Assembly: GCF_024713975.1 (NCBI RefSeq)
Contig: NC_091098.1
Location: forward strand, 23,906,316-23,970,315
DNA from: Paralichthys olivaceus
Taxonomy: Eukaryota > Chordata > Actinopteri > Pleuronectiformes > Paralichthyidae
Length of the DNA: 64,000 nt
Reading direction: 5' to 3'
Position 1 is the stretch's first letter; each line of letters starts with the position of its first letter. The position numbers and the translations under genes were made by a program. The notes beneath the pieces were generated by a model that was not told the DNA's origin, ran no database searches, and saw nothing but the letters and a program-made list of their open reading frames with translations. Positions 22,997 through 49,603 of the stretch are shown here, piece after piece.

Positions 22997-23117
22997 GTTG
23001 TCTGCGGTACTTCCACGTCTGTTCAGCTGAGGACGCCGCTGCCAGTTGCACCGCGGAGCTGGTTGAAGGTGCCCCTCCGGAAGGTTGAAGAGGGATTCAG
23101 GCCCGCAAGCAGCCGAC

Positions 23118-23285: not shown

Positions 23286-23359
<74 letters not shown>

Positions 23360-23820: not shown

Positions 23821-23856
<36 letters not shown>

Positions 23857-25683: not shown

Positions 25684-28600
25684 TCAGTCATCGTCCTCCT
25701 CTTCGTCCTCTATGGGCTCGAGGAGAACGCTCTGCTTCAAGCAGGTTTGGAGGTAATTCACCACTGTCCGCTGGAAGTGCTGGACGCTGCGGGGCTCTCT
25801 CAGGACGTGACCCTCGTCTGGGTACAGCTGCAGCGAGTAGTTGGCTTCCACCTTCACCAGTCGGCTCAGGAGCTCAGCGCTGTGCTGGAAGTGCACCCTC
25901 GCTTTGGTGAGAAACACACAGACATTTAGAATAAGCATTATGAAAAACTATTAAATCCAAATGTCATCATGAAATTTAAAACAATCTTACCATCTGCAGT
26001 TCCATGTAGAATAAGGAAATTCTCATCTTTCAGCTTGTTAACCTCCTCCAGCAGAGAGGCAGTCTGAAAATACACAACATGACTTTATACCTGTCCAGTA
26101 AAAACTAATGCCGCCCTGCAACAAATCCTACCTTCATAAAAGTTTTAATACTACTGAGCTGTTTGCTAAAATCGTTACAGTCGACTCGGAGGCTGTAGGT
26201 TCTGTTGCGGCTGAACTGTACTGCATTATTACACCATATTACACCAACTCTGGTTACCTCTGAGAATAAGAATTGACTTTAAGATTTTACTGCTTGTTTT
26301 TAAAGCCTGGAACAGTCAGGCTCCAGCCTATATCTGCGATCTGCTATCCCCCTATGAGCCTGATCACTGCCAGCGCTTTTGCTGCTTGACTCTTCTTTTA
26401 AATATCCCTCTTTAATTGTATGGCATATTGTTAACTGTTGGTATACAGGAAATCGTATAAATAAAGTACAATTCATTTATACTACTTAGTATTGGATGAT
26501 ATCTTGGGACATGTGATGTTTTGGATTTTATTTCTTGCATAATCTTTACTGTAAAGTACAGACATTTTGCTTGTGTTTAAATCATTGCTTTAAACATATC
26601 TTTTAATGCCCGATTTTGTTTGTTTTGAATATTTTCTTCTGTTATTCTTCTTATTTTAGTTTTGCCTGGTTTTGTTCTGTGTTGTTTTATTCCCATGGAT
26701 TTTATAAAGCACCTTGTTCAGTATCTTCTAAACCCTCTGAAATGGAAACCTTGCTGTGAGGCAACAGTGCCATCCACCACACCATCGTGCTGCCAACACC
26801 GATATCATTAATTTATCTAAACTATTTAATAGGTGAGCACAGAGTACTAGAGGACAGCTTCCGAGCCTCACCGAGTAAGCATGCTCCTCCTTTGCTGGAA
26901 GCCCGAGATATCTCTCTGAGAATGCAGCACCTGAAAGCAGTGGAACAACTTTTACACCAACACATGAATTGTTTTGACATTTCACAGCATTTTTCAAAGC
27001 CTCACTCGATGAATAATATATTGATGACATGGCTGCAACTCACTGTAAAGCCTGAAGTCAGTTATTGGTGCCGCAGCGGCCGTGCACTGAAAGAGTTTAT
27101 CTGTTGCAGCCAACATCTTGAGTGTTAAATAACCACCAAACGCCTATAAAGGGAAATAGAAAAAGTGGCCAGTTTAAATCAAGTGAACACTTTGATGACT
27201 TCAATCGAGTTGAATTGAGTTTTCAGGTTTTAAAAATGCTGTAACCTTGCCATAGAGGGCCATCCGGCGATCATCAATGTAGGGCAGTTGCATCATCAAC
27301 CTGTAGAGACATCATAAAATGTAGTTTATCACTTGACTGGCTTTTCTCAATGAGAGAACCTTATGTTGTTTTATAACTGCACTGACTCAGCAACTCCAAG
27401 ATAATCTTTGACTCTCAGTGCTCCGAGCTTGCGTGTATCTAGAGCAGCGGTCTTCTGTCCACGGCCGACCCCGCTCCTGCCGTCCACCCAGGCCAAGGCC
27501 ACGCTCTGAGAGCTGGAGAGGACTTCAGGCCAGTCGAGGGAGAATTCCTCAGTCACCGACTGACTGCCTGGAACGCCGTCTCTGATTAACGAGACGAACA
27601 GGATCAGCTAGTGTGCTCACAGTTGGTGGGTTCAGACCAGTTGTCATTGATCATATGTTGCAAAACCGGTGACACAAACAGTCCAATTTTCTCGTGTGGT
27701 TGCTCAGCGACACTTACACAATGATGAGGAGAGGGTGCAGGTTGGCCTCGTAACCCTGAGGTAGAGAGAGCTTCAGGTGCAGATCTGAGGAGAGCAAGAA
27801 GTGTTAGAAGCAAGTCAACGCTTCATGAACATGCAGCCTGAAATACATCTGAACAAATCTCTTTACAAAGGTATTCCTTCATTTGAACAAAAAAAAAAGG
27901 AAAGAACATAATATTCACATGCATGTCCCTTGGGGCACTCATGACTCATACTGACCTCATCACACAGTACAAGAAATGTCTTCTTTGGTACTTCATATTT
28001 TTCCCTTCCAGACACAGACTGAGACTTGGTAAACATTGACTGAGACAGCGAGCGAGCCGTTACTTCGGCTGAATATAGTCTGAAGGTGATCTGTGAATGC
28101 TTTGTTTGTGCAGCCAGCATCATAAAAATCACCATAACAATTTAACTTAGCTCCTTACACACGTTAAGGACGATTTATATAATATATAGTGAATGGCTTC
28201 TTTGTTGTACCATGGTTGTCTGCAGGGAGAGTCCTGAACAGAGTCTCAGGGAGCCTCTTGTCCTCCAGGGCTTTAGACAGAGGGCTGTTGTCCTCCAGGA
28301 CGACGTATCCTACAGGAGATAAAACATCACTTTGTTAGATTTTTGATCCTTAACATCAAAAACACACACAGTAGTCTCCATGGAAACTGCTCTAACTGAG
28401 AGCCACAGACAGAGGGCAGTGTTGACAAGCTTAAACTGATATCGTTCAGTTTAAGCTATCGTTCTCTGCAGGCTGCAGTAGGACACTGCAGGCCGCCTGT
28501 GTGTGTGGATAAGTCTGTGTATATGTGTAAGCTGATGTAATACTCACTGGAGGGGTCCTTTGTACTGTGAACTGTCACTTTAGGGATGCCAGGGCCTGGG

Positions 28601-31600
28601 GGATTTTTTTTTTTTTACAAAAGAAAACATTATATAAACCAACTGTCTAAGCAGCATGGTGGGTTCACGTTCAAGGTGAGAATGTGCATGTGTCTCATTT
28701 ACCTAAGCAGTAGAGGGTGAAGTGGGTTTGATTTGGGCTGAATTCAGATTTAAAGAAGCTGCATCCATCTATGAGGTTACAGGAGATGCACTGTCGCTGG
28801 AAAACTCCGTCCAGGTCCACGCTGGAGAGGATAAACAACAAGGTTATTGACCACACTTAAGAAGAATACAGGACGGTTTAAAGCAACCTGATTTGCTCCA
28901 GGAGAGGGTCAATTGATCGCTAAGATCTTAGAGAGAAGTGTCAGCCTGGAGTCAAACTGCACCTGACTGCTCAGAAACAAACGTGGCTCGATAAGGTTAG
29001 ACACAAAAGCCGTGGAGCAGATCACTCTGTGGAGCCTCGGAATGTCCTTTTCCACTCTGCTGCTTACAAATTTCATACAGAATCAATCACTTGTCAGGTT
29101 TAAACAAGCCGTCTTCCCTCCTGCGTGATATTGAGCTGTCTCAATGAAGCACAGCTGATAAAAAAGATATGAAACCCAGGAGGTAGATGAGGGAACAGCC
29201 AAGTGTGTTTATCACCCATGGGACTGCAAGTCTCAGCGACTCGAGCCTCAGCAGCACACGCAGCCCTCGTCCACTGAGATTGGATTTTTTTGTTATGAAT
29301 GTGTCAATTCAGCTGTTGTCCTGGAGAATATACAGCACACGACAATAAAGATTCAAGCCAGTTACTCTTCCAATTGTTTTTTTTTTGGTTTGTGAGCGGG
29401 GTGGCTCACGGGCTGGTGATATCAGAAGGTTGGTTCGTTCATTAATCAGAAACAGAGGTTCAGACTAAATTATTTCTTCAGCTGTGGTGTAAATATCTTT
29501 ATAACACTGTAAGGAATCTGTATTCTGTGGCTGCGGTCAGGCTCACCTGTAAAGGTGTCGGCTTTGTCTGGATTCCTCTGTGCTCAGAAAATAGCTGATG
29601 ATGAGAAAAAAAACGAAGCACACACACAGCAAGTTATTCAACAAACCCTCCAAAGAGCCGCAGATCGCCTTTGGCTTTCTTTACTTCATCGTATTAATTA
29701 ATTATTAACGACAAGAACCTTTCTGCACATATTTACATACTTCAGCATGTTCATAAAATCAGCTGTCCACTTCTATACAAATGTAAGGAGACAAAACCAA
29801 AGAGCAGCATCAACCTGTGGGTTATAGAAGTGAAAATGTCTTAAGCTGCTATCGTCTTTCCATAATTATACGTGACGCTCCCACTTCAGAGTTAAGCACT
29901 AATCTGCTCTGATTCAATTCATTGCCAGACAGTGAGTCAAAGCTTATTTGGGGATTTTTTTAATATAAGATGTTAAAATGGTATTTTTGCTTATTTTTAA
30001 ATGGAAAACCTAATGTGTACCATTCACCCAGAGTCTGACTCAATCAGGGGATTTGCTCTCCGGCAGCCAAAATGTCTCTCTACAGCAGGAGATGATTATT
30101 TTCATGGTGGGCACTATTCTGCTCAACCCCTCCAGTCACTTGTATATTCATGGTGAGCATGGTGCAAGCTGATAAATGTGCTGAAGGGTGATTCAACCTG
30201 GCTCCACACACTGCGGCTCTCACATACATTTTTCCAGCCTTCTCGTCCAGGGCGCAGAGCAGGGTGACATCCCAGCTCCCTGATGTCAAGAAGCGAGGAG
30301 GGACGGACGGGATGGCAGGCTGGGTTACACAGAGAAACAGAGATGAGGAGGAAGGCTGAAGCAGAAGGCAGATATACAGAATAAAAATAGGCGCAGCGAT
30401 ACAGCAAGTGTGTGTCAGAGGGTGAGGAGAAGAAGAACAATTTGAGATACAGGAGAGAAAACTCTGATTTGATACCGAGCCACTAATGGTTTGCAAGAGG
30501 CCAAATGTATGAGGCTGCACTACCCTGCATCTATAAAACACTCTGCTCTTTACTGCCAAATTTGCTTGAGCCTTTATTGAGAACAGAGATAATTGCACAT
30601 CTATGGAGAAAATAAAATAACTCAAACTGCTCTGCTAAGAACAGAGGTGGAGGCGACTGCGAGGAAAACAGACTTCAGGCTGCGACCTGCCGCTGAGATG
30701 TAAAAACTCCCGCTGGTTTATTTGACCCTCATTGAAATGTTAAAAGCCGGTTCTGCCTGAAATTATTTGAGGATGACACGAAGGAGTAAAAGTTGACGGT
30801 GCAGAAACTGACCTGTGCAGAAAGACCGGCGATGTGGTGAAACTCTCCGCGAGCGCCTTGTTTGGCTGGCAGGATCGTATAAAACACAGAGCCGTCAGCT
30901 AAAAACAGTGGCACGTCCTGTTGATGAAAAGCTATTCAGTCAGAATAAAGACTTCAATGATAAATAGGTGTAACAACAGACTTAATGAGACATGATCAAA
31001 ACCTACCTGTCGTTGATTTTGCATGATGTCCATGGCCATTTTGTGTTTCTATGGATTTAAAATCAAATGCATCAGTCAGTTAATTTAAAACGCACTTGCT
31101 TCAACATCTACAGCTGATGTGAATATCATGTCATAAATAAAGCTTTTTATGTTCATTAATTATTAAGGGTTGCATTAATTAACTGTAATGTAATCCAAAG
31201 GGGAAGAAGCATATAAAATACTGCAGCACATCACTGAAAATTCCTCTCATGCAGCAAATGACCTTACATATTAATCCAGCCGGTGGAGATTTGAAAGTGT
31301 AAAGAAATCAGTCCCGGCTCCCAACACAGGGTAAAAGAAGCAAAAATTCTATTAAAGCTGTACACTGCAGAGAAGGCCATTTGGATTACTAATGTGGAAC
31401 GAGGGTTGACTGCTCACCTCTGAGCACGCCCCTGTGGTGGCCTCGCACACGCAGAGCACCGACTGGTTCTGGGCTCGATTCAGCCAGCGAACCGCGAGCC
31501 GAGTGGTGCTGATCCAAGTCACCATAGAGACGTAGCTTTCTCTGAAGAGGTGATGCAGAAAATTATACACGGGGAGAAGATTGAGAAGTGGTGCAAATGG

Positions 31601-34600
31601 ACGGAAAAAAAGAAGCAGTGATTCTTTACGTTCACGACGGAGTACTAACCTGGCCCTGAGGGAGTCGGGAGGAATCATCTCCAGAGTGTGAGCAGGACCA
31701 TAAAGATTCACCACAAACAGACTGACTGATGGGATACTGGATCCAGCCTTTGTGCAAAACCAGAACAATGATTTATCACATACATTTTTGGAAAAACACT
31801 AGTGACGAAGGCAATGTTGTTGAGTTAGTAACTTTGGTCCAGACTAGCATGACATATCAACTAAGTATGGAGGTATATCATAATTAATCTGCATCAGATT
31901 TGTTACATAGTTTGCTCTTAATCAAGTGTTTCTCATTCTCTGCTCATGGTTTTATTTGTATCAGCCAGAGACGAACATGGTGCTTTCCAGCATCCTTTTA
32001 TTAATTCAAACATAAATTCTCTAAACATAATCTTGTCAGCTATTCCAATGTTTTGCTTTCAGCTCAGCAGCGTCTCTTCCCTCGTGTGTCTCTCTGATCG
32101 GCTGCTCTGCTGCAGCCTTTTGTTCCAGAGGATCAATCAGCTAACAGCCCTCAGCTGAACTGATTCATCCTCTGCTCCAGGTGCGCTCTGACTTTGGAGA
32201 CCGTCTCCACACCACCAACAATTATCTCAACATTCTGGTGAAATATCTCAAAACCTCCTTGATGGACTAGAAGAAAATATTAATGGTGAACAAACAATGT
32301 ATTCTGAAGAAGAATTTGAAACCGTTTTTACCTTTGGGTAGTGGAAGAGCACGTTGGATGGGTAGAGACCTCCTAAGAACTGAGGTATTTCCATCACAGG
32401 AGTGGCGGAGTTGTTGATGCTGAGGTATGCCAGCCGGGCGCCGTCCATAGACCACCAGTGAGCGACATAGGTCAAGAGCACCTCCTCTGTTTTAAAAGAC
32501 AGGAACAGGTTTAAAATACATAATAAAGTGTAATTCTGCTTTCTGGGATTGCAGTATTCAAACTTTTCTGATTCGTCCGTGAAGCTGGACGATGTCCTAC
32601 CTTCATAGGTCCAGTCAGAGATCCCATTCACCACCTTCTGCCCCTGGTCTGTGGTTGTGAGACGCAGGGGTTTTCCGGCCACGCTCGGTTTGTAGTAGAT
32701 ATCTCCATCGAACACGTAGGCCTGGCATCAGCAGCACAGACAGACAGACAGACAGAGCAAATCCATTATCAAAGACGTGTGGCTGCAGGCTTGATCGCTG
32801 GCTTCCTGAATTGAGCCTCGGAGGCCGTCCAAGAGCGAATGAATCATCAGCCAGCACACACATGGGTGAGAGCCAATTCATCATTACTCGCCGGGTAATA
32901 TGGTGCATATGAGCACTGACAAAGCAGCAAAAGCCAATTACGTTACAAGGAAAGGTGGATGAATAATATTACGGGTGTAAAGCGAACCCCATAATAACAG
33001 CACATCACTGCAATAACCCCGTGAGCTGGAGGTCTCTTCGTAATTGCAAAAACATGGCCCCACTGATGTTATCATTAAGAAAATGATGTGGAATGAAGGC
33101 CATTCATACACAGACAGTATAATTATGGATCGAGAAGGTTGAGGGAATTGAAAGGCCCGGGTGATAGAGATGACAACAATATTGATCCAAGTGTCTGTCT
33201 CACCAGCTGGTTCCCCTGATGTCCCCAGGAAGCGTACTGCAGCGCTGTCTTCTCCCTCTCCGCATGCTTCAGGTCCAGCAGATCCCTGGAACACACACAT
33301 AAAAACTCAAACATAATCCCTCCATTAGGGAAAACTGTCCTGTTCAAAGCCCTCTGAGCTCCGTCCATGCCCCGGCCGTGGGAGAGTTACTGTATTGCGG
33401 AGGACAAAGGAGCAAGATGCAGCGAAGGGGAAAAACAATGGGGTTGGTTCATGCAAGAGTGCAGCATATTTCCACTTTTTTCTTTTTCTGGACAGGCAAA
33501 CATTTCCCTCAGAGGCATAATTTCAGGCAACGGTTAATACTGCAGGTCTCCTAAAACTCATCTTCAGAACGACTCATCGGAGGCTCCAGTGACAATCCAC
33601 AGCCACCACAGAGGTTTCCCACTGATATAATGCAGATTATGAAATCTCAGGCAGTGAAATCTGAATAAACTGTATGTTGGGATATGGAGCCTGGAGAGGA
33701 CTGACGAATGAATGCATGTCTGACAGCGATATGAGGTTCTGATTCGATGAGACACGCGTTGAAGGGAGGTTTGTTTTTGTTAAATTCGCAGGTCTGCTTG
33801 CATTGGTAACGCTCATGCCCAGTGCAGCCCATGCATTAGCATTCACGATCACCTACCCATTAGCCACATTGTAGATAGCATAGGAGGCTGTGAAGGACTG
33901 AGAGAACACCTGAAAGAGGTAGAGGATATCATGCATACAGTGTGCCACACTTAGATCACACCACAGTTATTTTAGTGCTCACACATGCTCATAAATATAA
34001 GTTAAATGTAAATGAAACACTGGTAAATGGTAAATGTGTGTGTGTATATATATATATATATATACATAGTTCACCCATTCAGAAACACATAACGATTCCA
34101 TACGCTGCACTATTTCTATCACACATCATTCACACACTGCCGGCACAGCAGTCAGGGGAAATTTGGGGTTCACTTCGGCATGCTGGGTGGAGGAGCTGCC
34201 CGACCGCTGCCACTCACACTGGTCAGACCGCACTTACAATTAATCACGAAGCTGTTTGCATTAACTTAAATGACTGCGAGCATCAAGTGGCTTGTTGCTT
34301 TTATAAAAAGGCAGCAGGACATTATGCTACAGAATTAGAAAGAAATATTAATTGATACCTCAATTCAATTATTGATAGTACAGATGTTCTGAGAACAATA
34401 CCAGCATCTGAAATGCCTCCGATCCTACATGCAAACATATACACCGATCTAATACAGCGTCTTTAAAGTATATATTTTTCACGCAGATAAAACTACACTT
34501 TTCTTTTCCTGCAAATCTCTTAAGATGCACTGCACTGCCACTGGCAAGTGTTGCTTTTAGAGCGGTGATTTTATAGTGATTTTGCTGTTGTGTAGCCACA

Positions 34601-37600
34601 GCTAGTAAAAATGTCTTTCACGCTGGAAATTCCCACAAGTAAAACGGCACGTGCACCATATTCAAGACTTCAGTTTCCAGCTTTTTAAAGGAAGCAAATG
34701 TCCGAGATTCATATATTTATTTGATTGGTCATCTGTATCTGCCGGGACGCAAAGTCGAGGTATCAGAATCTGTATCTGGAAGGGAAATATGATATCGGAA
34801 CATCTGTAATTGATAAATAGTTCTACAAAGCAGCAATAGCGATGAGCCTTGTGTCACTTTTATCAGACCAGTTATCTTAATATTGCTTTAATTGCTACTG
34901 AACCAATCACAGCTTAGTATATGATCCGTTTTAACGCTGGCAGCAAGTTCATCCAGAATACATCATTACTGTGATCACTAGTGAAGAGCGGAAATTTGGA
35001 TCGCAGAGGTCTTTACGTAAGACTGAGTAAAAGAGACAGTATCAGCGACATGAGAACAGAAAGAAAAATAAAGGCAGACGTTCTTATAAAATACCATCAT
35101 TACAGCTGATATCCTTCCCACTGAGACCTATTGAGGCTGGCAACTCAGTCGCAAACCTGAGCGCCAGCAGCTTGATGAATAATTAAATTAACACACTGAA
35201 GAAGACTAAGGGACCAGGATCGATGAATGTGCGCATGTGTATATATGTGTAGTGTTAATTGCTCACGGCATTACCTGATGACTTCCAGGTATTATATTGA
35301 TTTCTGGGATTTTCTCTTTTGTTTGGACCAAATGCTTGGAAGCAGGCTATTTGCCCTGTGGCCTCTGAAAGCCTCAGCCAGCTGGAAAACCAGTTCCTAA
35401 AGAAATTAAATGTCACATCCCCTATACGGCACACTTAGCAGTGAAATTGGATTCCTCCTTTGTGTTGTTTGCCTGTTGTTAGAAAATGCATGGATGGAGT
35501 GGCACAGGGGTAAAGCTGCTGGGGGGACAGGAGGGGAAATAAGTGCAAAGGCTGTATAAATGTGAATGAGGGTAAACAGGAAAGGAGCCGTGCTTCAACA
35601 GAAAACGACTGCAGGGGCAGCGAGGGAGGGAGGAATTGGTCAAACAGGAAAAAGGTGATGGACGGAGATAGAGAGAGGAGGAAACAAAGACAGGAAGGGA
35701 GGAGGAAAAGGATGAAGACAGGGCAGGCCGGAGCTGACGGGTGCTCGACGCCCAACGAGGACCGATGTTGAATTACGAGGGGGCATCACTCTTCGAGACC
35801 AAAGGGGGCAGCATTGCCACAAGCACAATGTCCGATCAGCTGTTCGCGATTTTTCAAGGAACCCGGTGATTCTGCTGATGATTTAGCGTCGTGAAGCCGG
35901 TGGAGGAGGCTGGAAGTTATGGTGTGTTTTCCTGCGTCTGCGTGTGACAAACAGCCACAAAGAGTGAGAGCATCTGTCTCCGGGAGGCAGCGTGAACTCT
36001 AGTGTGCTGCCAGCAACGTGTCATAAATCCTCCTGATAGCTCTGCTAGTCAACCCCCCCCCCCACCCCACCCACTGCCACCATCACCACCACCTTTTGCA
36101 CCCCGCCCCCTCGCTACGCCACTGCTGGGGGGGGGCACACCACACACACATACACACAGATTAAACACTCATAAGATAACATGACAGTGAAAACATATAG
36201 AGATTACAACGCCCTTTGCATGAGCACGTATCCTGTGTTCTGCTGTGCACTACAGAGATAAAAGCATCCTTCCCTCCCAACAGTGTTGCTTCCCCACAAG
36301 CAGCTCCACAATACATCGTCTTTGATACCAACACCCATCAGCGTTTGCTGCAGCGTGCACACGAATCTCTTGGCATTTTATCTGTTCCTAAACTGCACCG
36401 TCTTGGCAGGAACCGCTCTGTTTGGCTCCTGCTCATCAATCCCCCCAAAAACATCCATCTCCTCCGAGCTATCTCGCCATCACTCTTTTTTAATATAAGA
36501 AAAATGTAGGTCTTGGTCTTTCTGCTCCTTCTCCTCCTCGAACACGAGCCAACTCAAATCAAACATGCTCTGAGGAAATCTGCGTTCCCTTGTTGTCATG
36601 TGGCCGAATCCCCAACTCACATCTATGTATATCCTCGTCTCTAAAGCAGTTTATTTTCACCCACCAGGCACAAAACCCTCCCTAAAGCCTCCAGAGCTAA
36701 TATAAAATCCAGAGAAGCCTTTTAACATTGCACACACACACTGATCATCCACTTCCCTCCACTGCACCCCACTCCTCTTGGTATCTCTGCCACTCTTCGA
36801 TAACCATTCTGATTGATTTCAACCGGGCAGTGTATCTAAGGGCAAATGGTGCATATCCCATTATTCTTCTCCCCTCCATCACAAGAGGCTTCTCCCCACA
36901 GTTTTTCCCTCTCTCAGTTCTCTGCCACTCTCAGCAGCGAAACCGCTCCTCTTCCAAACAGCGGAGCCGCTGCCTGGTGCAAACTGCTTCAGTCAGCACA
37001 AATCCCCCCAGAGATAGACAGAGGAAAAGTGAGGGAGAGTGAGGAAGATGAAGCAGGAGAGAGAAGGAGGGACATAGAAGGGAGGGATGATTGGAGGAAT
37101 AGCCTTCATGCATGCAAAATGCCAACTACACACACACACACACACACACAAACACACACATATCCCTTCCTAAATACACAAATGATTCCAGGTGCCCACA
37201 GCCTCAGATTTCCTCGAGTGTGTGCACACACCGAGCATACAGATGAGAGCAGACAATCCCTGCTGATATCAAAGGAAGTATGCTAATGGCGTGGCATAAA
37301 TCAACCACAGCAACCCACAAACTGGGCAAAGCGTGGAGCCCGTTCCCCAACAGAGATATCTGAAAACTGATTAAATGTATGTTAACCGCTCAATTATTCA
37401 GTTGGGATGCTCTGTGTTTGTGACGAATGTCGTAACACAGCAACAGGCTCATCCGTCCCCCCCCCCCCCCCCCCACGCACAGAAAATATGATACGCAGTG
37501 ATTACAGCGGGTCTCTCTGAAGGAAATCCACAGAGGGAAGGAATGAGAGAGCGACTGGGCAGCAATATCTGCATCCAGGTTTTTAATAAAATTTGTCCCG

Positions 37601-37980
37601 AGGGCTTTAATTTCCCACAACACAACTTGCCTGATCTTTGCACGGTGCCAACGTAAAGTGTGTAAAAGACTTGGGCCTCGTCCACCTCAATCTGATCTGA
37701 AACCACCCGCGATTGTGATTCTTGTCAGCTTCTCATTAGAATTCTCCCACAGAAGAAGCAGGGCGATTTCATTACCGCAGCTCCAACTTTGCTGCCCCCC
37801 CCTCTCCCCTTCCCCCCCTTTCCCTTTGCCTCCCACGTCCCACTGATCACTCACTCTTTCCTCAACCCCCCTGCACCTTCCACCATCAGCCAGTTTAAAT
37901 ATTCAACTCCCCATATGTTACACCCGTCATTTGGCGGGCGGTGTTTCAGAGCTACAGACTGCTGCTGCAGCAGAAATCAG

Positions 37981-38012
<32 letters not shown>

Positions 38013-41000
38013 CACAAACACACACACAGACACACACTCGTGTTTCACTCCTCTCTGTTGCGCCGTTGAGGCTCTGACTTAGATTCATGGCACCATTGTT
38101 TCTCAGCCACTAGTGGCCTGCCATACATGGAGGTTTGTGAACAGGAGCAGATTGCCTTGATATTTATTAGTGCATGGGTTAATTTATGGCCCTGGATATT
38201 TACCTGGAGGTAAAAATGAAGATGGTGCTAAATATTGAGTCAACTCAGCATTCAAAGCAAACTTACTGGTTGAACGTTGTACGCCAGGAGGACAAACCTC
38301 TTGTCTGCGGACACTTGGAATTTGGTCGTGGTCAGATCCTGTCGAAAAACAAAGGAAGAAAATGAGATAAAACTTATTCGGAGACGTTTTGTCTCTCTCA
38401 CTGTGTGTGACTCACATATCCTCAGAACCGCTCATCTTATCGGCTTCACACTTGGACACATGATACATTCAATGTTACTCATCTTCAAATAATAACGTCA
38501 CCGGTGCTCTGTAGCAGCAGAAGCAACCGGGACTCATTGACCGAAGTGAGATCGTCGATCGTTGGGTTCTATATGAGGCAGGTTTAGAATGGCCACTGCA
38601 TTAGTTTATCCAATTGGAGTTCCTCAAGGGTCAATCCTGGGACCATGCTGCCTTTATGCCAGATTGTCTCTCTCCTATAACTGCTGTGCTGAAAATGTCC
38701 AGCTTCAGTTGTGAAACCTGGAAACGTTTCAAATCTGGCTATTGTACATAATGGTCTAGATCGTCTTTGTTATCAGTAACTACAGAGATTTATATGAAAC
38801 ATTTTAGATTTGATTGGATTGTGTGATTGACTGAATATGTAGTGTCTCAATAGAATGACTCTTTCAGATTATTGAATAAACATAAAGTCAGATTGAGAAT
38901 AAGAGATACTGAACTAAATGTAAGTAGGGTTTATACATTTTCTTTATAAAAAAACATTTTGGAGCCATAGCCACAAGCCTGAAATACTTGTGTCGTACGC
39001 TATTACAGTGATGTTAGGACCCTAAAATGCTTTGCACAGATAGAATCAGGACACAGCTTTCTAATGATGTATAATTTATCAGGGTTGTGTGAATATTGGA
39101 TGGAGTACAAACCAAAACCCAAAACATCCACAGTGACACTACAGGTAGGCCAAAGTGTCCCATGGGTGGGACAACACATTTTAAAAGGTTGAACAACAAA
39201 CTGTGTCCTTTGTGTTTTGTTTCTCAACATCCTAAATAGTATATTCTTCTGTGTTTCTGTTTTAAGCTGTAGCTGTAGCACCGTGACACCGGTGCTGGCT
39301 TCACTGCACTGTCCTCCTGTTAAATCCATGATGTTTGATTTGTGAATTCAAAATCCATTTTGTAAGCTGCTGCACAATTATCAGATACTATCAGATACTG
39401 TATCAGTGGGTTCCTCATCCCTTACACATCCATTAGTCCCCAGTCATCATGTTTTCATCTTTCATCTGTTAGTTTGCAGGATTACTCTTAAATCAGAGAA
39501 CAGCTCCAGGAATTGTATTTTCTTTTGTTTTACAATCGAGAGATTGGACATTTTTGTTAATTCAAACTCTTTGTTTGAATAATTACCAGATCGTGTTTAG
39601 GGGACTGCAATTTGGTGCAGATCCAAATAATTATCTGGATCTAGTTAATTTAAATTAGGCTTCATCATCATTTCTATTCTAATTAGAGCCATTCAACTAA
39701 ACCAATATTAACTCAGCATTTCTTTATTTGAGGAAAACCATTGTACTTCCTGGTATTCGTGACAGAAAATATATTTTTCTTATCAACAATGGCAGGGATG
39801 GCAGAGCCACATCACGACACAGAGGAGAGAGACTTCTTCTTAACCTGACAGCACAACCCTGCGTCAAGCTCCTCGGTGATGACCCATATAAGTCTGTCAG
39901 TGTCGTGCAGCAGAGGCGGCGTTCAAAATCATGCCCTTGCTTGGAAAATTCTCTTTGATGGCACATGTTGAGGACTCACAGAGCCGCCAGATTGGAGGGG
40001 GATGAGCCGATACTGTCTCTGTGCCAAATCTTTGTGGGATGTGGAACAGTGGGACTCATCAGCTTCTCTTTCCCTCCATCTGCAAGCTCCTTCCTTTGGG
40101 TTGGCCAGGTCTATCCGGCTGTCTGTGGTTATCAGCCAATCAATACTTAAAACCTGTCCTCCGCGCTCATAAGCTGTGTTGTTGCAACTCACCAGGGAGC
40201 TGTTGTCCAGCAGAGTGGAGGTGAGGTTGCTGGTGAGGCTGAACGACAGGACGTGTCCCTCTCGGGTGCGGACAGCCACTTCATTTTCTGAAGGGGTCAG
40301 GGGAGAGATAAAGTGCTGCGTTGAACGATGACTTAATTTAAACAAAGGCAGAGGTGCTCGCTGCGCCTGCAAACCAGCGGCTCAGTTTCAGGTGAGATCA
40401 TTAAAGGATCGTTTGGGAATTCTTACCACTCAACCAGGCTACACAGGGGTCGTGAACCTTGAAGTCCTCGCTCTCCAGATCCTCCATGGTGAGATGGGAG
40501 CGGAGTAACAAGTGAGATTCATCTTTAAGGGCAGAGAGACAGAGTTAGTTCATCAGAAGATCTTTCCTGTGTACAGAGGCAAAGCCTGAGCGGGTTTGCA
40601 GTTGGCCTATATTTCTGCTTCGGTCTTGGATTCTCTCTTTTTTTTTTTTTTTTGCATTTTAAGTGGCCCTGTTGATGTGTTTGTAGTTTGGAAGCACTCG
40701 TATTGACTGTTCAGTGGATAGTTACATTTTCATTAAACCGAGCTTAGCTGGAAGCAGGGGAACAAACCAACCTGACTCCGTCCAATGATTCCATCGTTAT
40801 ATCCCGTTTGTTTAATCTATAGAAACAACAAAGTGTAAAGACGTTTCTCCTTTTTAGGAGCGGTTCTTCAATCGAAGAGATTATTTTGTGGTTGCCTGGC
40901 AACTGCTCAGACCCAAGAGATAGTCAACAGGATTATAACATCCCATAAAATGTTGAATTGTTGTTTTTACAAAGATGATTTGAGAATGTATTACATTTCA

Positions 41001-41408
41001 CAAAGTCTCTGCAGTGAAACCACCTGAACCCTGACAGAGTCACCAGGAACAAGAGTCAGGTGAAAACTCTTTGTCACCTCTTAGGGATTTTTTTTTTCTA
41101 CTTTTACAAAGATGTGTTCATTTGTGAGATTTACACCTGTTCTCACCTGTTTCCATTCTTTGTGATATAAGATAAAAGTAAATATGAGTAAATAAACACA
41201 GTTCCTGTGATTCCACCACATTGCCACTCTGCTCTTCACAACCTCCACCCTCCCCTCCTCTCTTTCAGAGCTCTTACCAGGCGTGAGGAGGATGACCGAG
41301 AGAATGACCAGAGACATGACAGCCAGGATCACCACCATGGCAATTCCAATGCCCTTCCAGTTCCGCGGGGGACCGTCTGAACTCCCCAGGTCCTGAGAGT
41401 GACGGGGG

Positions 41409-41495
<87 letters not shown>

Positions 41496-44400
41496 ACAGT
41501 GATGAATGTGAGCAGGGATCGAGGAGGAGGAGGAGGAAGAACATTAGTGCTGCTTCATTTCCGCAGTCTCACAAAAATGTCCCCCTGACAGGCATCTCAG
41601 CGCAGTGAGTCTCAGGGGGGATTGAGACCAGCAGCGCTGAGACCTCGCTGAATTACACTCATTTTCCATTTGAGAGCTGTGTAAAATTGTTGCATGTGAG
41701 AAATCAGACTTTAATTGCAACAGCAGTTTTGGGTGCACCATCATTTTTCTTCATTATCACTCATTATCATTTCACTTGTTACGTGACCGATGGGACACGT
41801 GGCGCAGCTAAAACAGAGAGTGAAGTTATCAAGGAATTTGTGGTGCCTGAAACGACTTTTATAGAAAAAGCCGTTTCCTTCCTTAATCTGCAAGGAGCCG
41901 CTTCGGGGAGGATCAGGATTTATTCAAGAGCTTTGGATGAAGTTGTTAATGAGGGGAAAGGGGGAAAAAGACAGGGGCTGTATAAACAAAGAGTTATAGA
42001 CAAATGTGTCGTTGCCAAGAGAACCAAACTTCAAGTTGAGGCTCAAACCCTTACATAAACTCTGTAGTGTATATGGGATCTGGGGGAACTGATGGAATGA
42101 GCGGGCATCAGCATCAGTCACGATTAAACACAATTGCATTCTGTTCCCAGGCTGCGCTCCACTCCCTCATAATATGTGTCTGGCGCTGCTGGAGCCACAT
42201 GCCGGCTGGAGTGTGCGAGTTAAATCACACAGCAACCATAAAACTCAGCCTCCATTATGGCGGCTTCAGCCCTTTGGCATCACCCCTACATCAGCCTCGT
42301 CAGTCCCGGTCCAGCACACGTCTCACTAGGCCCCGGGGAGGACAACAGCGGAAGGAGGGCATCTCTGCGGTTCACTCCTCAACATATTGCGGCTCCTCCG
42401 TGCTCCCTCGGTGACGCCAGCTGTCCCTGAGTCTGGGCAGTCGGCCACAGTCGCCTTACAAACCCAACCTATAGCACTTCCTCTCCGCACACACACATCT
42501 ACCAGTACACAAACATACACTTCATTCTGCCCCAGGCCATCTGAATATCTTAAAGCTCCTTGCACTTGTGGTGTTGGAGTGCGGGAAACTGGCAGTGTAC
42601 TTAAATAACTGTCGTCAAGATGTCTTCAAAACCCATTTCAGGAAAGTGAACTTTGCAGAAAAACTGAAGATTAAAGGTGTGACAGTGGGATTTCTCATCC
42701 TATTTTATGACTCCATGTGTCTTTTATGTAAAAAAAAAAAGAAAATCCTTGTTACATTTACTCATGTCGTCGTTTTTAACAATTCATTTCAGAAGTTTCC
42801 ACGTCGTATTACGAGGGAGCGGGTCGACTGTATAAGACGAATGGAAGACATATGAGGTTTACTTTAACTGGAGTGGTTGCCAGTGCAGGACTCCCTGCCA
42901 AGGTCTCATCTTTAATAGATAGAGATCCTTGGCTGCAGTATCGCAACACGTTCAAATTAAAACCACCACCAGTTGCACCTGCAGGGACAACTTTTAAGTG
43001 ATGTTTGAACTCTGGCAGGTCAGCGCAGGCCAGAGCTGGGAGATTGATGTCCACAACTGTGAATCTACTCGCCTTTCTAACAGTCTGGTTTATCTCATTC
43101 TCGTGCCCCCTCTCAGCAACCAATCTCTCACTGAACCACTATTATCCCTCCATCAGATTAAGAAGCCTACAGTCGTCTATGAAGGCTTTGGTAGATTACA
43201 GTCAATGCTGCATCAGTGCACCTTTAACACTGTCTGCGTGACTGTACATGTACAATTTTGGAAAACGGACACCCTATGTATATGTTGTATATAACTATTT
43301 TAAATTTTACATAGAGAATTAAATAAATATTCTAATGTGGAAAGACACATTTCCAATTAAATTCCTCCACTTGACTGATTCTAACACAGTATTTTCATTT
43401 CTGAGTCCATCCTCAAATTACTGTGTGCAACATGAGAGCAGAACATCCTCCTAAATGGGATGCACGGCTCCTCTCGTTCCCCTGAGCCCAGGCATTATGT
43501 CCTACTTCCAATTAAGGTTAGCATCGTTGCAAAGACTGACAGGGAGAATCCCTTATTTGTGTAAATTAGTTTTTGTCACACACGCAAATGAGACGTGCAG
43601 AATCCCCCAGAGTGAGCGGAGGAAAAGCTGGTGGTGTCGACCGGCTGCTGGTCACGATGCACAAGGGACTTTAATGCAGCATAATCTGCTGGCACAGGTG
43701 AACAGAAGAGGAGCTGCAACATGTGACTGACCCCGCGTATCTCGCACAGCAGCCTGATGGACAAGCATATCTCCATCTATCAACATCGATACATCTCAGG
43801 GAAAGTTTTCTGCTGAGCCGAATGAAGAATTAATCACGCATTGACCTTCCTCAGCAAGCCGTCTTTTTTATTCCGCCCGCCTGATCCAGCAGGGGAGAGA
43901 GAGGAAGCCCGAGATGAGGTGTCAGTCAAACACCAAAGGGTGCGAGAATGCAAATCAAAGGTCTGTGTGTCTATGGATCCACCGCCTGAAGGTTTCCCCT
44001 CGAGGGGATTTTTATTCTGTCACACCACAGAACCCCTGCTTTAGAGTGAGGTCTTACATTCACTCATTCAAAATAAGAGAATCAATACGGTGTACAGTTT
44101 TATGAGGTCCAAAGGGAAACAATTAATCGTGGTAATACAGACGTACAAGGACTTTTAGACTGTTGAGCACTGTTTCTCTGTGTGACACCCCAACGTGGAA
44201 TATACGAGACCTACTCCGACCTATTCAAATTAAAAATCATAGCATCACAATGAACCATTTATTACGCCGCACACAAACTGATTCCAGCAAAGTGGCTCCC
44301 TTTTTCTCGGAGCACTGCACAACAAACAATTGCGTCTGTATTGATTGAGCTTGAACACTATAAAAGCAGGCCGTGCCTAACACAATTACTCAATCTGCAC

Positions 44401-47029
44401 AGCATGCACCACAGTTAGGTTCTGAGGAATCCAGGCAGCGCTAAGAATTCATAAATTGGGCTCAGGAGACCTCCCTGACTCCATCTTCTCTGTCTTTGAG
44501 ACAATAAATCACATGCAGAGGATTGAGGTAACCAGGCTGTTTGAGGATTCTGGTGCTGGATTTGCATACCTCTAACCCCCCCCCCCCAATTAACACGGGG
44601 AAATGATGTTTATTACACACATGACATTGGCAGCCACCATAAAAACAGGGGAGATCCATCGGCGGACACATGCAGGCTTCAATATAACCAATATGCTCGT
44701 GGTTTTAATGATTCACTGTAATTGCTCACGAGGGAACGCTCTAGATTAGCAAGTATCCCACGTACGTATTACCTTGTCAATATCTCTCACTGCCTCATTT
44801 CAAATGAAGGTCATCATTAGAGCAGGCTGTAACTTTAGCATGGTTGGAATAAATGGTTTCCAAGCATCTGTAGTAATGAGATACTTCAGCTCAGTATTGA
44901 TTCTTATCTTTTAGATCCAGAGAAATGTATGTGCTCCCTCTCGCTCCCCGCAGCACTGCTCCTCACTTTGTGTTTCTTATCTCAAAAAGCAGTAGTTACA
45001 CCATATGGGACTGATTTTTTTCTTTTTTGCCCTCGAGGCTTTTGCCAGACAATGCAGCGAAATGAAAGACCTGCAGCTTTAACCTCTGCTGCTGCAAGGC
45101 CGCCCTACACTGTCTCATTCTTTTCATGCTCCCCATCACGCGTAAGTAAATTACAGCATAAAAGGGTCGTGCATGAGACAGCTTCTCCCCCGGCACGTCC
45201 AGCCGCTCACAGTGACCGAGTTACTGCCTCTGCGAACAAGCAACATCTGTAAAAGACACGTGGGGGAGCGGTGATGACGTGTTAGTTACAGTAAGATACA
45301 ACAAAGGATGCTCGACTTATCGCCGTGGGACTTTACAGAAATACTGTCTCAGCACATGATATATGCTTAAATAAATACATAGATGGAACAACAATGAGCT
45401 CGCTGTATAAACTATGTACACAACATGAAACCACTGTGTTGAGAATGAACATCAAAACAATAACGATACAACAGATTTATCCCCTTTAATTTCTTCCTTA
45501 ACCCTGGAGACAAACTGAGCCAGAATCAAAGCTTGATGGTTTTGTGTGATATTTCTTTCGTAGTTAGACGTGTCCACGAGAGGTAAAGACTTATGTCATT
45601 AAACAAGGACGCACAAACACATGGCACAAGTGACAAACCACATTATTACTGGAAAACCCTGCTGCATCCTCTCACCGGCAGAGTGAAGTGAAGCAGTGAA
45701 AACCTTAATGAGAGTGTGCACATGTGATTTGTCTCATTATTAATTGTTTTTTCTGTGGAACGTCGATTATCGATTGGAGACAGTGACGTGAAATGTTGCA
45801 ACATATGCAGCTGATGGATTGTCTGTATACGCCCCTGCAGCCGTGTGTGTGTGTGGGCCCTTCTCAAGGAGACACTAACGCTGCAGGAGATGATTTCAGA
45901 CAAGTTTCCCAAAGATTTCATCTCATTAGCATTGTAAGGTTATTGTGTCACTTAACGTCAGACATCACCGTGCTCATATCACACAGCAATTAGACCTAAT
46001 TTCACTAATAACAGCTCCACGTAAAACTCTTGAACAGTTTTGCCACCAGGGCTGCGGCAGAGATTTTCATGGAGGGTGACAGTTTGATGAAATCAATTAA
46101 TGGGTCGACTTTGGCAGGATTTTTAAATGGTCTCGGTGCCCTGTGGATAAACAGAAGCACCACAATAACATGTCTGTGTGATGGTGCACTACAAAGTTTT
46201 ATCCATGGAGGGAAGCACTGCATTTAGTCCTGCATAGATATTCGTCGGGCATGTCCATCGGCAATATAAATAACTGATTATTAGATCAGAAATGGACACA
46301 CGTTACGCCATGAATATAAAATCCACCTACTCAACTGTAATTAGCCTTCATGAAATATCTCGCACTAAAACATAGTGAAATAAATGAGAAGACACAGGAA
46401 CTTGAACAAGAGATGTGCATTTAAAATGCAAGGATTATATTTGACTGTATGTCTATGTTATCGACTGGGAACATTAAACAGATGGCATTGTCTTCCTTCA
46501 CTGGCAATACCTCAGCACAAGCAGAGGGATAATCAATCATACACTGAGTGCAGCCTGTCAGCCCCTTTGTCACACATGCAGGTCCACACTGGAGGGGTGG
46601 GGGGGCAGTCTGCTGGGACACATCTGGATATTAGAGGAAAAGATTACAACTGTTCCTGGTGCAGATGTGATGCTAAAAGTCTGGATGGGACATGAAGGAG
46701 TGAGAGGATGTGGACGTCGGTGTTACTACAGCAGGCTGCCTGCACCGCAGTGCACGGTGTCAGGGGTGTCCAGTCCACAAGATTGATATTGACGAGCAGA
46801 AAAGTCTGAATGGGCGAAATGGCTGGAATCGATAGTCACAGTGTAGTGGGGGCACACACGAGGAATCCCTCTGCTGCACAACACACACACACACACACAC
46901 ACACACATCATGCACGCTGCACTCACATCTGCTCTGAATATGATGCAAAGTAAAGTCACAGCAACAAATAAATTAAACTCGTGCACGTACCAGCTCCGTG
47001 GTCATGTTTTGTTGAGTTGTTGCAATCAT
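25684..47029 (-). CDS. Inactive dipeptidyl peptidase, DPP10-like (DPP6/DPP10 family, Kv4 channel accessory subunit)
   Basis: Twenty-five coding exons: 46991-47029, 41278-41392, 40427-40522, 40193-40287, 38267-38338, 33857-33909, 33204-33285, 32601-32721, 32332-32486, 31650-31747, 31418-31541, 31007-31048, 30813-30917, 30228-30319, 29547-29594, 28703-28821, 28548-28595, 28211-28309, 27718-27784, 27387-27581, 27246-27300, 27044-27143, 26872-26930, 25991-26063 and 25684-25901. They give 789 residues (human DPP10 is 796). Order: 27-residue cytoplasmic tail, one membrane helix (28-49), beta-propeller (AHWWSMDG, VVNLYGPAHTLEMIPPDS, KQGARGEFHHIA), alpha/beta-hydrolase domain and acidic end (EDEEEDDD). 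The nucleophile motif reads YGKAFGGY, with Ala641 where active DPP4 has Ser, DPP6 Asp and DPP10 Gly; Asp717 (HGTAD) and His749 (YPDEGH) remain. The family is type II, enzymatically dead and modulates Kv4 channels. It resembles DPP10 more than DPP6, but its genomic place is not that of dpp10, so I give no symbol. The start codon and first exon are the least certain part. Confidence 0.92.
26220..26740 (+). mobile_element. LINE 3' remnant (reverse-transcriptase C-terminus and tail) in an intron of the DPP gene
   Basis: From about 26270 one frame reads RIDFKILLLVFKAWN, then QAPAYICDLLSPYEPD, matching the conserved end of fish LINE reverse-transcriptase proteins (the RxxFKxLLLxxKALN-GLAPxYLxDLL block of L2/Rex1-type elements). 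It stops at TAA near 26413. The following 300 bp end with a TTTATAAAGCACCTT string typical of such 3' tails. It is antisense to the host gene. Confidence 0.65.
28428..28457. repeat. Perfect 12-bp inverted repeat with 6-base loop
   Basis: AGCTTAAACTGA at 28428-28439 faces its exact reverse complement at 28446-28457 across the loop TATCGT. It lies in the intron between the exons 28548-28595 and 28211-28309 of the DPP gene, about 90 bp into that intron. Confidence 0.85.
33910..38266 (-). other. 4.4 kb intron of the DPP6/10-like gene
   Basis: It contains TG/TA dinucleotide runs (34035-34065), purine-rich sequence (35540-35740), C tracts (36053-36063; an unbroken C18 at 37457-37474), and CA repeats (37128-37160, 37989-38038). 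No alternative exon was recognised. Confidence 0.6.
37457..37474. repeat. C18 homopolymer (G18 in the sense strand of the DPP gene)
   Basis: Eighteen uninterrupted C bases on the plus strand, in an intron. The exact length may be affected by sequencing. Confidence 0.85.
38556..38700 (+). mobile_element. LINE reverse-transcriptase fragment
   Basis: At 38616-38645 the plus strand codes for GVPQGSILGP, the invariant block just before the catalytic YADD motif of non-LTR reverse transcriptases. It is flanked in the same frame by ALVYPI and CCLYA. The catalytic aspartates are not present. The fragment lies in an intron of the DPP gene, antisense to it. Confidence 0.7.
39560..39670 (+). repeat. Possible RTE-type repeat tail
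   Basis: The words GCAATTTGGTGCAGATCCAAATAA and ATCTGGATCTAG resemble a recurrent non-coding block of fish RTE-like repeats. Recognition is from memory only. Confidence 0.3.
41411..41492. repeat. (CA)41 microsatellite, (TG)41 in the sense strand
   Basis: Eighty-two bases of pure CA on the plus strand. It ends 18 bases from the acceptor of the membrane-helix exon (41278-41392). Confidence 0.97.
46881..46907. repeat. (AC)n microsatellite
   Basis: About thirteen AC units in DPP intron 1, about 85 bases downstream of the exon 1 donor in the direction of transcription. Confidence 0.9.
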
Positions 47030-48699: not shown

Positions 48700-49603
48700 G
48701 TGAGTGGTTTAATCCCGGGTAATGTTTGCTAACGCGGGCTAACGGGCACCGAAGTCAACGGCAGCAGCGGATGCTAACAACCGCAGCATTGTTTTCCTGC
48801 GGATCAGTGGATGAACGTGTTTCCTGGAGCTTCAGGGCAGAAACAAAAGATTTTAACTTGAACTAATTATAAATAGACATGTTGGTGTAACAGAGCTATT
48901 GTTTATTTAGATTTGTTGATTTATTTGCCATTAAAACGTCCTAACGTTTGAGTTTGAACACTGCTCACTGTGCTTACTCTTCATGTGCCCTAACACTGCT
49001 CACGTTTTGTTCATCTGTTGATTGAATTTCATGTTGTGCAGAAAGGTCAGTAAATGGTATTAATCAAATCACTCCTTGTATTTAAAACATGTTGCACAGC
49101 TAAGTTAGATTTCATGTTCTCTGCCCTTTCATATGATCCAATAATATATTCATTACTTTACCTTCTTTGTTCTTATAATTCTCATTATCCTTTTCGTTAT
49201 TATTAATATGGGTTCTTGTTGGTTTTTGTTTATTGTGAGGAGCTCAGCGTGTTTTGATGCAGTTCAGGATTCACAGCTAAAAGCTTTTCATGCTGTTGTA
49301 TATTTCTGCCATGTCAAAATCTCGAAACCTGCCACAGTTCTGTGGATTTAGACTTTAGACGTCATGTCTCTGCACGTGTCAAACTATCTGTTGCACACGA
49401 CTCCTTGTTCTTTTGGTTGCTGAATATATATATAGCTGTTTTGGGTCATTCTCATGCTGCAGAATACATTTTGAACCCATCAGACGCCTTACTGAAAGTA
49501 TTGCAGGATGTATAAGAATATGAATATCTCAAGTGACTTGCCGAATTTAAATGTATTTATCTTACAATCCATCTGTTTCAAGGGTCCTGATTTATAGGAC
49601 ATC

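What the first reader, a model, noticed from the sequence alone, without database searches (positions are those of the whole stretch)
25684..47029. A possible third DPP6/DPP10-type gene, retained on the HOXC-side chromosome
The gene codes for a full 789-residue DPP6/DPP10-like protein but sits between cs and racgap1, in a region that matches human 12q13, where no DPP gene is known to me. In human, DPP10 and BIN1 are close on 2q14 and DPP6 is on chromosome 7; COQ10B and ANKRD44 are on 2q33. This window has the matching set ankrd52, coq10a, DPP, bin2. The four HOX-bearing chromosomes (2, 7, 12, 17) come from the early vertebrate genome duplications, so this gene may be the 12q13 ohnolog of DPP6 and DPP10, lost in mammals and kept in fish. 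If so, fish have an extra class of Kv4 accessory subunit.
Basis: partly seen in the sequence, partly recalled or inferred. Interest (0 to 1): 0.8.

Follow-up and report, generated by a model that had tools for sequence, protein, structure and literature searches.

The report
Third DPP6/DPP10-type gene in a fish
This fish chromosome carries an intact extra relative of two brain potassium-channel helper proteins, DPP6 and DPP10, in a neighbourhood matching a human region where no such gene is known; it looks like an old third class of helper that mammals have lost, though its exact age is not settled.

Summary
On the minus strand, 25 coding exons (47029 to 25684) encode a 789-aa non-catalytic DPP6/DPP10-like protein ("dppX") between citrate synthase and racgap1-type genes, in a block that by recall of the human map is 12q13.

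The same genome holds three dpp10-type genes (two on C10, one on C24), two dpp6-type and two dpp4-type genes. dppX is 47% identical to human DPP10 and 43% to DPP6, which are 52% identical to each other. In the best-fitting trees it falls outside the human+fish DPP10 clade and the DPP6 clade. Placement beside any single fish dpp10 copy is rejected under LG+G4, LG+I+G4 and LG4X. Other nested placements are not rejected in every test, and LG+C20 resolves little.

Nearly all introns are shared with its relatives; dppX alone lost the last one. It keeps eight conserved cysteines and the transmembrane core.

Best reading: a third DPP-like lineage, probably the 12q13 2R ohnolog, acting as a Kv4 auxiliary subunit. 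Age and function are inferred. Gar, shark and expression tests could not be run; the paralogon search of this genome did not complete.

The parts
25684..47029 (-). dppX: third DPP6/DPP10-type gene, 25 coding exons, 789 aa, type II membrane pseudo-peptidase
   Evidence: gene model; reproduced over 715 residues by independent spliced alignment; PDB and Pfam hits
46991..47029 (-). exon 1 (tentative): short cytoplasmic N-terminus MIATTQQNMTTEL
   Evidence: one of 15 ATG-to-donor candidates, donor score 7.5; unproven
41278..41392 (-). exon 2: juxtamembrane and transmembrane helix (RNWKGIGIAMVVILAVMSLVILSVILLTP)
   Evidence: 20 of 29 residues identical to DPP6, 17 of 29 to the C24 dpp10
40427..40522 (-). 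exon 3
   Evidence: 40427-40499 again
40193..40287 (-). exon 4
38267..38338 (-). exon 5
33857..33909 (-). exon 6
33204..33285 (-). exon 7
32601..32721 (-). exon 8
32332..32486 (-). exon 9
31650..31747 (-). exon 10
31418..31541 (-). exon 11
31007..31048 (-). exon 12 (14 codons)
30813..30917 (-). exon 13
30228..30319 (-). exon 14
29547..29594 (-). exon 15
28703..28821 (-). exon 16, cysteine-rich segment
   Evidence: Cys columns
28548..28595 (-). exon 17
28211..28309 (-). exon 18
27718..27784 (-). exon 19
27387..27581 (-). exon 20
27246..27300 (-). exon 21, start of nucleophile elbow
27044..27143 (-). exon 22: GKAFGGY, catalytic Ser of DPP4 (GWSYGGY) replaced by Ala
   Evidence: DPP4 letters
26872..26930 (-). 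exon 23
25991..26063 (-). exon 24 (HGTAD, Asp retained)
25684..25901 (-). exon 25: fused last exon; the intron after YPDEGH kept by the 7 other family genes modelled in this genome is absent
   Evidence: 25732-25901 again
1747..4381 (-). context: ankyrin-repeat gene (ankrd52-type by recall), continues left of the window
   Evidence: one piece, 2582-2857, tested; other ORFs by eye
7692..8676 (+). context: COQ10-type gene, exon pieces
   Evidence: Polyketide_cyc E=5.6e-12 for 7692-7985; 8449-8676 no Pfam hit
14086..23000 (-). context: citrate synthase gene (approximate limits)
   Evidence: Citrate_synt E=7e-8 at 16791-17060; other exons seen as ORFs, by eye
49598..57000 (+). context: racgap1-type gene (approximate limits)
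   Evidence: C1 8.6e-6 (25.9 bits, cut-off 26.5) and RhoGAP 1e-16
59300..59899 (-). context: DUF1295 membrane protein gene, part
   Evidence: 59300-59593; the rest by eye
62900..64000 (+). context: N-BAR protein gene (bin2-type), 5' part, approximate start
   Evidence: continues in L109

Best explanation
dppX is an intact, non-enzymatic DPP-like gene forming a third deep lineage beside DPP6 and DPP10. It most probably descends from the early vertebrate genome duplications as the copy on the 12q13-type chromosome, kept in this fish and absent from the human 12q13 region (recalled). It most likely works as DPP6 and DPP10 do: a type II membrane protein whose transmembrane helix packs against S1-S2 of Kv4 channels, promotes surface expression and speeds A-type current gating, while its large beta-propeller/hydrolase ectodomain folds and dimerises but does not cleave. 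No MNQTA-type first exon was found in the 8.6 kb searched upstream, so it may not add the N-type pore-block component. Shown: gene, intactness, family, divergence, neighbours, intron pattern. Inferred: 2R age, membrane topology, Kv4 binding, gating effect.
For: Intact 25-exon reading frame. Three dpp10-type and two dpp6-type genes elsewhere in the same genome. Identity 47.1% to human DPP10, 47.4% to fish dpp10_C10p, 42.7% to DPP6, against 52.5% for DPP6-DPP10 and 65.8% for the C10/C24 dpp10 pair. Without DPP4/FAP, ML trees place dppX outside the human+fish DPP10 clade: aLRT 96.2/UFB 94 (LG+I+G4), 93.8/91 (LG4X). Under LG+G4, LG+I+G4 and LG4X, AU rejects a position beside dpp10_C10m, C24 or C10p singly (0.019 or less), and beside dpp6_C16, the one placement inside fish dpp6 that was tested (LG+G4, 5e-49). 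22 of 22 (C16) and 21 of 21 (C17) dppX introns in the covered part are shared with dpp6, so it is a DNA-level duplicate, not a retrocopy. Eight of eight cysteine columns invariant in the DPP6/DPP10 set are kept; the TM segment is 20/29 identical to DPP6 against 42.7% overall. Codon-position identity 0.618/0.683/0.417 against dpp10_C10p fits long purifying selection. Flanking genes form a 12q13-type block (human map recalled). HH, GLI and INHB show Hsa12/7/2 triplets (PMC2235844, passages). TM plus N-terminus of DPPs bind Kv4 S1-S2 (PMC8566240, PMC9409431, passages).
Against: dppX evolves fast: it differs at 39 of 175 sites invariant in the eight other DPP6/DPP10 sequences, against 2-14 of 138-150 for each of the others, so its deep position could be partly long-branch attraction. 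With DPP4/FAP as outgroup, its exact place is weak (sister of DPP6 70.8/69) and so is the human+fish DPP10 clade itself (84.2/50). In that rooted test 8 of 13 topologies are not rejected, among them X beside (C10p,C24) 0.222, X+C10m outside the others 0.070, X+human DPP10 0.194. With PDB chains alone dppX grouped with DPP10 (bootstrap 63). LG+C20+G4 (worse likelihood) gives the DPP10 clade 79.7/66, or 21.1/39 without C10m, and rejects only X+C10m (nine taxa) or only X+C24 and X+C10p (eight taxa, 0.049 each). Diagnostic sites are few: of 16 separating DPP10 from DPP6, dppX has the DPP10 state at 9, the DPP6 state at 4, neither at 3. No expression, binding or outgroup-fish data.
Confidence: 0.6

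Rival explanations
1. dppX is a duplicate of dpp10 that arose in the ray-finned lineage (before or near the teleost duplication), moved to the racgap1/cs block and then evolved fast, so that it only looks ancient.
For: AU does not reject X beside (C10p,C24) in the rooted set (0.222); LG+C20+G4 does not separate several nested placements; dppX shares the DPP10 state at 9 of 16 diagnostic sites; this genome already has one extra dpp10-type gene, tail-to-tail on C10.
Against: Without DPP4/FAP, LG+I+G4 and LG4X reject the five placements with fish dpp10 that were tested (AU 0.002-0.049), though not the sister of human DPP10 (0.075, 0.123); the landing site is where a 12q13 ohnolog would be expected.
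Confidence: 0.27
2. dppX is an ordinary teleost (3R) duplicate of dpp10 or dpp6.
For: Teleosts keep many 3R pairs (general knowledge); C10p/C24 dpp10 and C16/C17 dpp6 look like such pairs here (UFB 100 each).
Against: Both slots are already filled by those pairs; positions beside one fish dpp10 copy have AU 0.0185 or less, and beside dpp6_C16 5e-49 (rooted, LG+G4). Under LG+C20+G4 with nine taxa X+C24 and X+C10p are only at 0.078 and 0.077.
Confidence: 0.05
3. dppX is a third ohnolog that no longer serves Kv4 but has another role (adhesion or receptor). This differs from the best explanation in function only.
For: Highest divergence of the set; exon 1 unproven and no MNQTA-type exon found in the stretch searched; TM 20/29 and 17/29 to relatives, below DPP6 versus C24 dpp10 at 22/29.
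Against: The RNWKG...SVILLTP core and all eight conserved cysteines remain.
Confidence: 0.2
4. dppX is a decaying or silent copy.
For: No transcript evidence was available.
Against: No stop in 789 codons; GT donors and AG acceptors at all 24 introns of the model (part of the model was chosen on such sites); second codon positions conserved above third.
Confidence: 0.04

Closest known systems
DPP10 (DPPY), Kv4 auxiliary subunit
   Same: Fold by homology, domain order, lost catalytic Ser, kept Asp and His, 8 cysteines, intron positions of the fish dpp10s; best PDB hit
   Different: 47% identity only; last intron lost; Ala at the nucleophile instead of Gly; outside the human+fish DPP10 clade in the best trees; different chromosome
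DPP6 (DPPX), Kv4 auxiliary subunit
   Same: As above; TM 20/29 identical; exon 1 loosely resembles the short DPP6S type (recalled)
   Different: 43% identity; lacks a four-residue stretch present in the two DPP6 chains; nesting beside fish dpp6_C16 rejected
dpp10_C10m, extra dpp10-type gene of the same genome
   Same: Non-catalytic, Ala at the nucleophile (GKAYGGF), fast evolving
   Different: Tail-to-tail with dpp10 on C10; groups weakly with DPP10; sister relation to dppX inside fish dpp10 rejected by every model used, but X+C10m outside the other DPP10s is not (AU 0.070)
DPP4/FAP
   Same: Common S9B ancestry and fold
   Different: Catalytic; 28-31% identity to dppX

Membership tests
DPP-like proteins (DPP6/DPP10 group, S9B pseudo-peptidases) | DPPIV_N propeller plus Peptidase_S9 domain, full length | tested here: met
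   Pfam; PDB (775-aa model without exon 12)
DPP-like proteins (DPP6/DPP10 group, S9B pseudo-peptidases) | Catalytic serine missing | tested here: met
   GWSYGGY (DPP4) replaced by GKAFGGY
DPP-like proteins (DPP6/DPP10 group, S9B pseudo-peptidases) | Single TM helix with the RNWKG...SVILLTP core near the N-terminus | tested here: met
   sequence motif; no topology program run
DPP-like proteins (DPP6/DPP10 group, S9B pseudo-peptidases) | Closer to DPP6/DPP10 than to DPP4/FAP | tested here: met
DPP-like proteins (DPP6/DPP10 group, S9B pseudo-peptidases) | Core set of 25 exons for TM and ectodomain (PMC3973911, passage) | tested here: inconclusive
   24 core exons; all dpp6 introns in the covered part shared, one terminal intron lost
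DPP-like proteins (DPP6/DPP10 group, S9B pseudo-peptidases) | Binds Kv4 and changes its trafficking and gating | not testable with these tools
   inferred from the TM segment
DPP10 proper | Inside the clade of human and fish DPP10 | tested here: inconclusive
   Outside in the best trees; sister of human DPP10, and of (C10p,C24) in the rooted test, not rejected; nesting beside single fish copies rejected by LG+G4, LG+I+G4, LG4X
DPP6 proper | Inside the DPP6 clade | tested here: not met
   AU 5e-49 for the one nested placement tested (beside dpp6_C16); sister to DPP6 as a whole remains allowed (AU 0.798)
2R ohnolog of DPP6/DPP10 on the 12q13 chromosome | Lies in a 12q13-type gene block | tested here: met
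   gene names and the human map partly by recall
2R ohnolog of DPP6/DPP10 on the 12q13 chromosome | Same chromosome carries HOXC and other paralogon members (dhh, lmbr1l, smarcd1, asic1) | not tested
   searches for hedgehog, LMBR1 and SWIB families were sent but did not complete; HOXC and ASIC searches were not sent
2R ohnolog of DPP6/DPP10 on the 12q13 chromosome | Present at this locus in non-teleost fish | not testable with these tools
   no collection of vertebrate genomes is offered; G000 is the only fish genome reached

The most novel reading that the evidence does not exclude
Jawed vertebrates started with at least three DPP-like Kv4 auxiliary genes. The 12q13-type one survives in fish as a distinct third class, was lost on the way to mammals, and gives Kv4 channels an accessory subunit with its own kinetics and no N-terminal pore-blocking variant.
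Probability: 0.5. Interest if true: 0.62.

Novelty: new member of a known kind. Interest (0 to 1): 0.52.

Why it matters
A review seen here in passages states that the DPLPs consist of DPP6 and DPP10, two genes likely from a duplication early in vertebrate evolution (PMC3973911). A third old class would change the count of Kv4 auxiliary subunits in fish, matter for using fish neurons as models of A-type current, and give another triplet for the HOX-linked 2/7/12 paralogon, whose HH, GLI and INHB families show the chromosome-12 copy branching first (PMC2235844, passages). My literature searches listed no paper that by title or start of abstract is about such a gene; only 10 of 90 papers were listed. 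They cover only an open-licence library, and automatic database annotation such as 'inactive dipeptidyl peptidase 10-like' may well exist; I could not look.

Tried and rejected
Nucleophile residue as a class mark: rejected, because the five fish DPP-like paralogues modelled show Ala (two), Asp, Gly and Val there. Fast-inactivation exon (MNQTA type): no match among 15 phase-0 ATG-to-donor candidates with donor score over 5 between 41.4 and 50 kb; further upstream was not searched. Vertebrate relatives among bacterial genome contigs: 555 stretches matched, 328 relatives, of which 80 were kept and listed, all with bacterial or MAG titles; the other 248 were not seen. Viral contigs: 41 stretches matched, none a relative. 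Local synteny around the dpp6/dpp10/dpp4 genes: read only by eye from ORFs, in an output that was cut. Paralogon test in the own genome (PF01085 many times; PF04791 and PF02201 once each): not completed. Structure prediction was not tried: the protein is spliced, so it is not read letter for letter from the DNA, and homology already gives the fold. BIN2 versus BIN1 was not separated by the BAR pieces.

Limits of the trees: fish models C10p, C10m and C17 lack their 5' exons, and the first residues of C10p and C10m were trimmed as doubtful. The rooted topology tests used LG+G4, the rooted tree LG+I+G4. Sampling is thin: one fish, human, and two DPP6 chains; species labels of the PDB chains are recalled, except that DPP6 in the 7E8 entries is human by PMC8566240. 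In the unrooted sets, columns with more than two gaps were dropped (693 and 716 columns kept); in the rooted set those with more than three gaps (703 of 825 kept). Intron mismatches (C10m 1; C24 1 and one extra; dpp4s 2 each and extras) were not examined.
Full report
What is there. The finding is on the minus strand. Stop-to-stop frames showed a collinear series of DPP-like exons. Anchor peptides joined through scored splice sites gave first 24 exons and 775 residues, then, with a 14-codon exon at 31048-31007, 25 coding exons and 789 residues. A spliced aligner written here and guided by the PDB DPP10 chain returned an identical protein over all 715 residues it covers. Pfam finds DPPIV_N and Peptidase_S9. 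The nearest solved structures are DPP10, then DPP6, then DPP4/FAP. The serine nucleophile is replaced (GWSYGGY to GKAFGGY), while the HGTAD aspartate and the DEGH histidine remain (catalytic roles recalled). The first exon is uncertain: MIATTQQNMTTEL is one of 15 candidates.

Neighbours. Left to right: an ankyrin-repeat gene, a COQ10-type gene, citrate synthase, dppX, a C1/RhoGAP gene (racgap1 type), a DUF1295 gene and an N-BAR gene. Just right of the window the BAR gene continues, and a SMAGP-like ORF follows (by eye). By recall of the human map, ankrd52, coq10a, cs, racgap1, bin2 and smagp are 12q13 genes.

The rest of the family in the same genome. The window lies on contig C6 of a 588-Mb, 25-contig assembly. 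DPPIV_N and DPP10 searches found, besides dppX, dpp10-type genes on C10 plus, C10 minus and C24; dpp6-type genes on C16 and C17; DPP4/FAP-type genes on C10 and C24; and matches on C3 and C16 that I take for DPP8/9 (which type each is; the DPP8/9 label is recalled). Only the best candidates are scored by that tool, so the counts are lower bounds. Spliced models were built for seven of them, with no stop in any, though the aligner penalises stops. The two DPP4-type genes stand near proglucagon- and SLC4-like ORFs, and on C10 a helicase ORF (by eye, output cut), as in human 2q24 by recall. So C10 and C24 look like the teleost pair of human 2q.

Is dppX one of these? Over 703 aligned columns dppX is 47.1% identical to human DPP10, 47.4, 44.3 and 42.7% to the fish dpp10s C10p, C24 and C10m, and 42.7, 41.7 and 41.8% to DPP6 and the two fish dpp6s. 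DPP6 and DPP10 are 52.5% identical, and the C10p/C24 pair 65.8%. With PDB chains alone and no fish paralogues, dppX grouped with DPP10 at 63% bootstrap. Adding the fish genes moved it outside. In the rooted 13-sequence tree (LG+I+G4) it is a weak sister of DPP6 (70.8/69), and the human+fish DPP10 clade itself has 84.2/50. Of 13 topologies tested (LG+G4) the five with dppX outside all DPP10 have the best likelihoods. AU rejects five: dppX as sister of all fish dpp10s (0.024), of C10m (1.5e-36), of C24 (0.0185), of C10p (0.004), and of dpp6_C16 (5e-49). The other eight stand, among them dppX beside (C10p,C24) (0.222), beside C10m outside the others (0.070), and beside human DPP10 (0.194).

Without DPP4/FAP (nine sequences), the split of human+fish DPP10 from dppX+DPP6 has 96.2/94 (LG+I+G4) and 93.8/91 (LG4X). 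AU then rejects the five placements with fish dpp10 that were tested, under both models (0.002-0.049), leaving the sister of human DPP10 (0.075, 0.123). Under LG+C20+G4, whose likelihood is lower, support is 79.7/66 and only dppX+C10m is rejected at 5% (0.040). With C10m removed (eight sequences), LG+I+G4 gives 96.7/95 and again leaves only the sister of human DPP10 (0.069); LG+C20+G4 gives 21.1/39 and rejects only the two single-copy placements (0.0493, 0.0486) (all). I read this as good but not conclusive evidence for a third lineage.

Structure of the gene. Of the dppX introns in the part each model covers, 19 of 19, 20 of 21 and 21 of 22 are shared in position and phase with the dpp10s (C10p, C10m, C24), 22 of 22 and 21 of 21 with the dpp6s, 20 of 22 and 20 of 22 with the dpp4s. 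Only dppX lacks the last intron, which all 7 others have. A review gives 25 core exons for DPP6 and DPP10 (PMC3973911, passages); dppX has 24, as one loss predicts. This makes it a DNA-level copy with a private intron loss. Codon-position identities (0.618, 0.683, 0.417 against C10p) fit long selection on the protein.

Function. The Kv4.2-DPP6S structures show the DPP transmembrane helix against S1-S2 of the voltage sensor (PMC8566240, abstract and passages). Deletions and chimeras place binding in the N-terminus plus TM, and trafficking and membrane stability in the cysteine-rich ectodomain (PMC9409431, passages). dppX keeps the RNWKG...SVILLTP core: 20 of 29 identical to DPP6, 17 of 29 to C24 dpp10, those two 22 of 29. 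It also keeps all 8 cysteine columns invariant in the other eight sequences. That makes a Kv4 partner the best guess; it is not shown. The MNQTA first exon that gives DPP6a and DPP10a fast inactivation (PMC9409431) was not found between 41.4 and 50 kb.

Age. HH, GLI and INHB families have members on human 12, 7 and 2, with the chromosome-12 gene branching first (PMC2235844, passages); the same paper argues that the HOX-linked groups need not stem from one block duplicated twice. EN1/EN2 lie at 2q14.2/7q36.3 (PMC2211742, passages), and DPP6 at 7q36.2 (PMC9409431). A 12q13 sister of DPP6 and DPP10 is therefore the kind of gene one would expect, and the tree with dppX outside both is allowed (AU 0.203) though not preferred. 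The direct test, mapping paralogon genes in this genome, could not be run. A Solea paper lists dpp10 on a BAC with gpd2 and nr4a2 (PMC7915175, passage), consistent with ordinary dpp10 lying elsewhere in teleosts.

Verdict. The papers listed by my literature searches include none that by title or start of abstract describes a third DPP-like gene, 10 of 90 were listed.

Noticed in passing
G000 C10:21566152-21589314 (L104-L106): A second dpp10-type gene, tail-to-tail with dpp10 on the same chromosome, model of 681 residues without a stop (its first residues doubtful); it groups weakly with the C10/C24 dpp10 pair as their sister, so it may be a duplicate older than the teleost duplication.
   Followed up: partly
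G000 C10, C16, C17, C24 models: The lost-nucleophile motif varies among fish DPP-like genes: GKGYGAY, GKAYGGF, GEDYGGF, GKAYGGY, GQVYGGY, against GKGYGGY and GKDYGGY in the PDB DPP10 and DPP6 chains.
   Followed up: no
window 25684-25901: dppX alone has lost the last coding intron that the seven other family genes modelled keep.
   Followed up: yes
G000 C16:10333150-10338319 (L097): A RhoGAP-type ORF lies next to the C16 dpp6 gene (by eye); not the neighbour I would expect from human 7q36 (recalled).
   Followed up: no
window 23184-24005, minus: A 274-codon open frame, most of it Ser/Leu/Ile/Tyr/Phe repeats: an expanded simple repeat left of dppX, next to the citrate synthase gene, not a gene.
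   Followed up: no
window 59300-59899 and 61654-62040, minus: DUF1295 (steroid-reductase-like) gene between the racgap1-type and BIN-type genes; the second stretch looks related by eye but had no Pfam hit.
   Followed up: no
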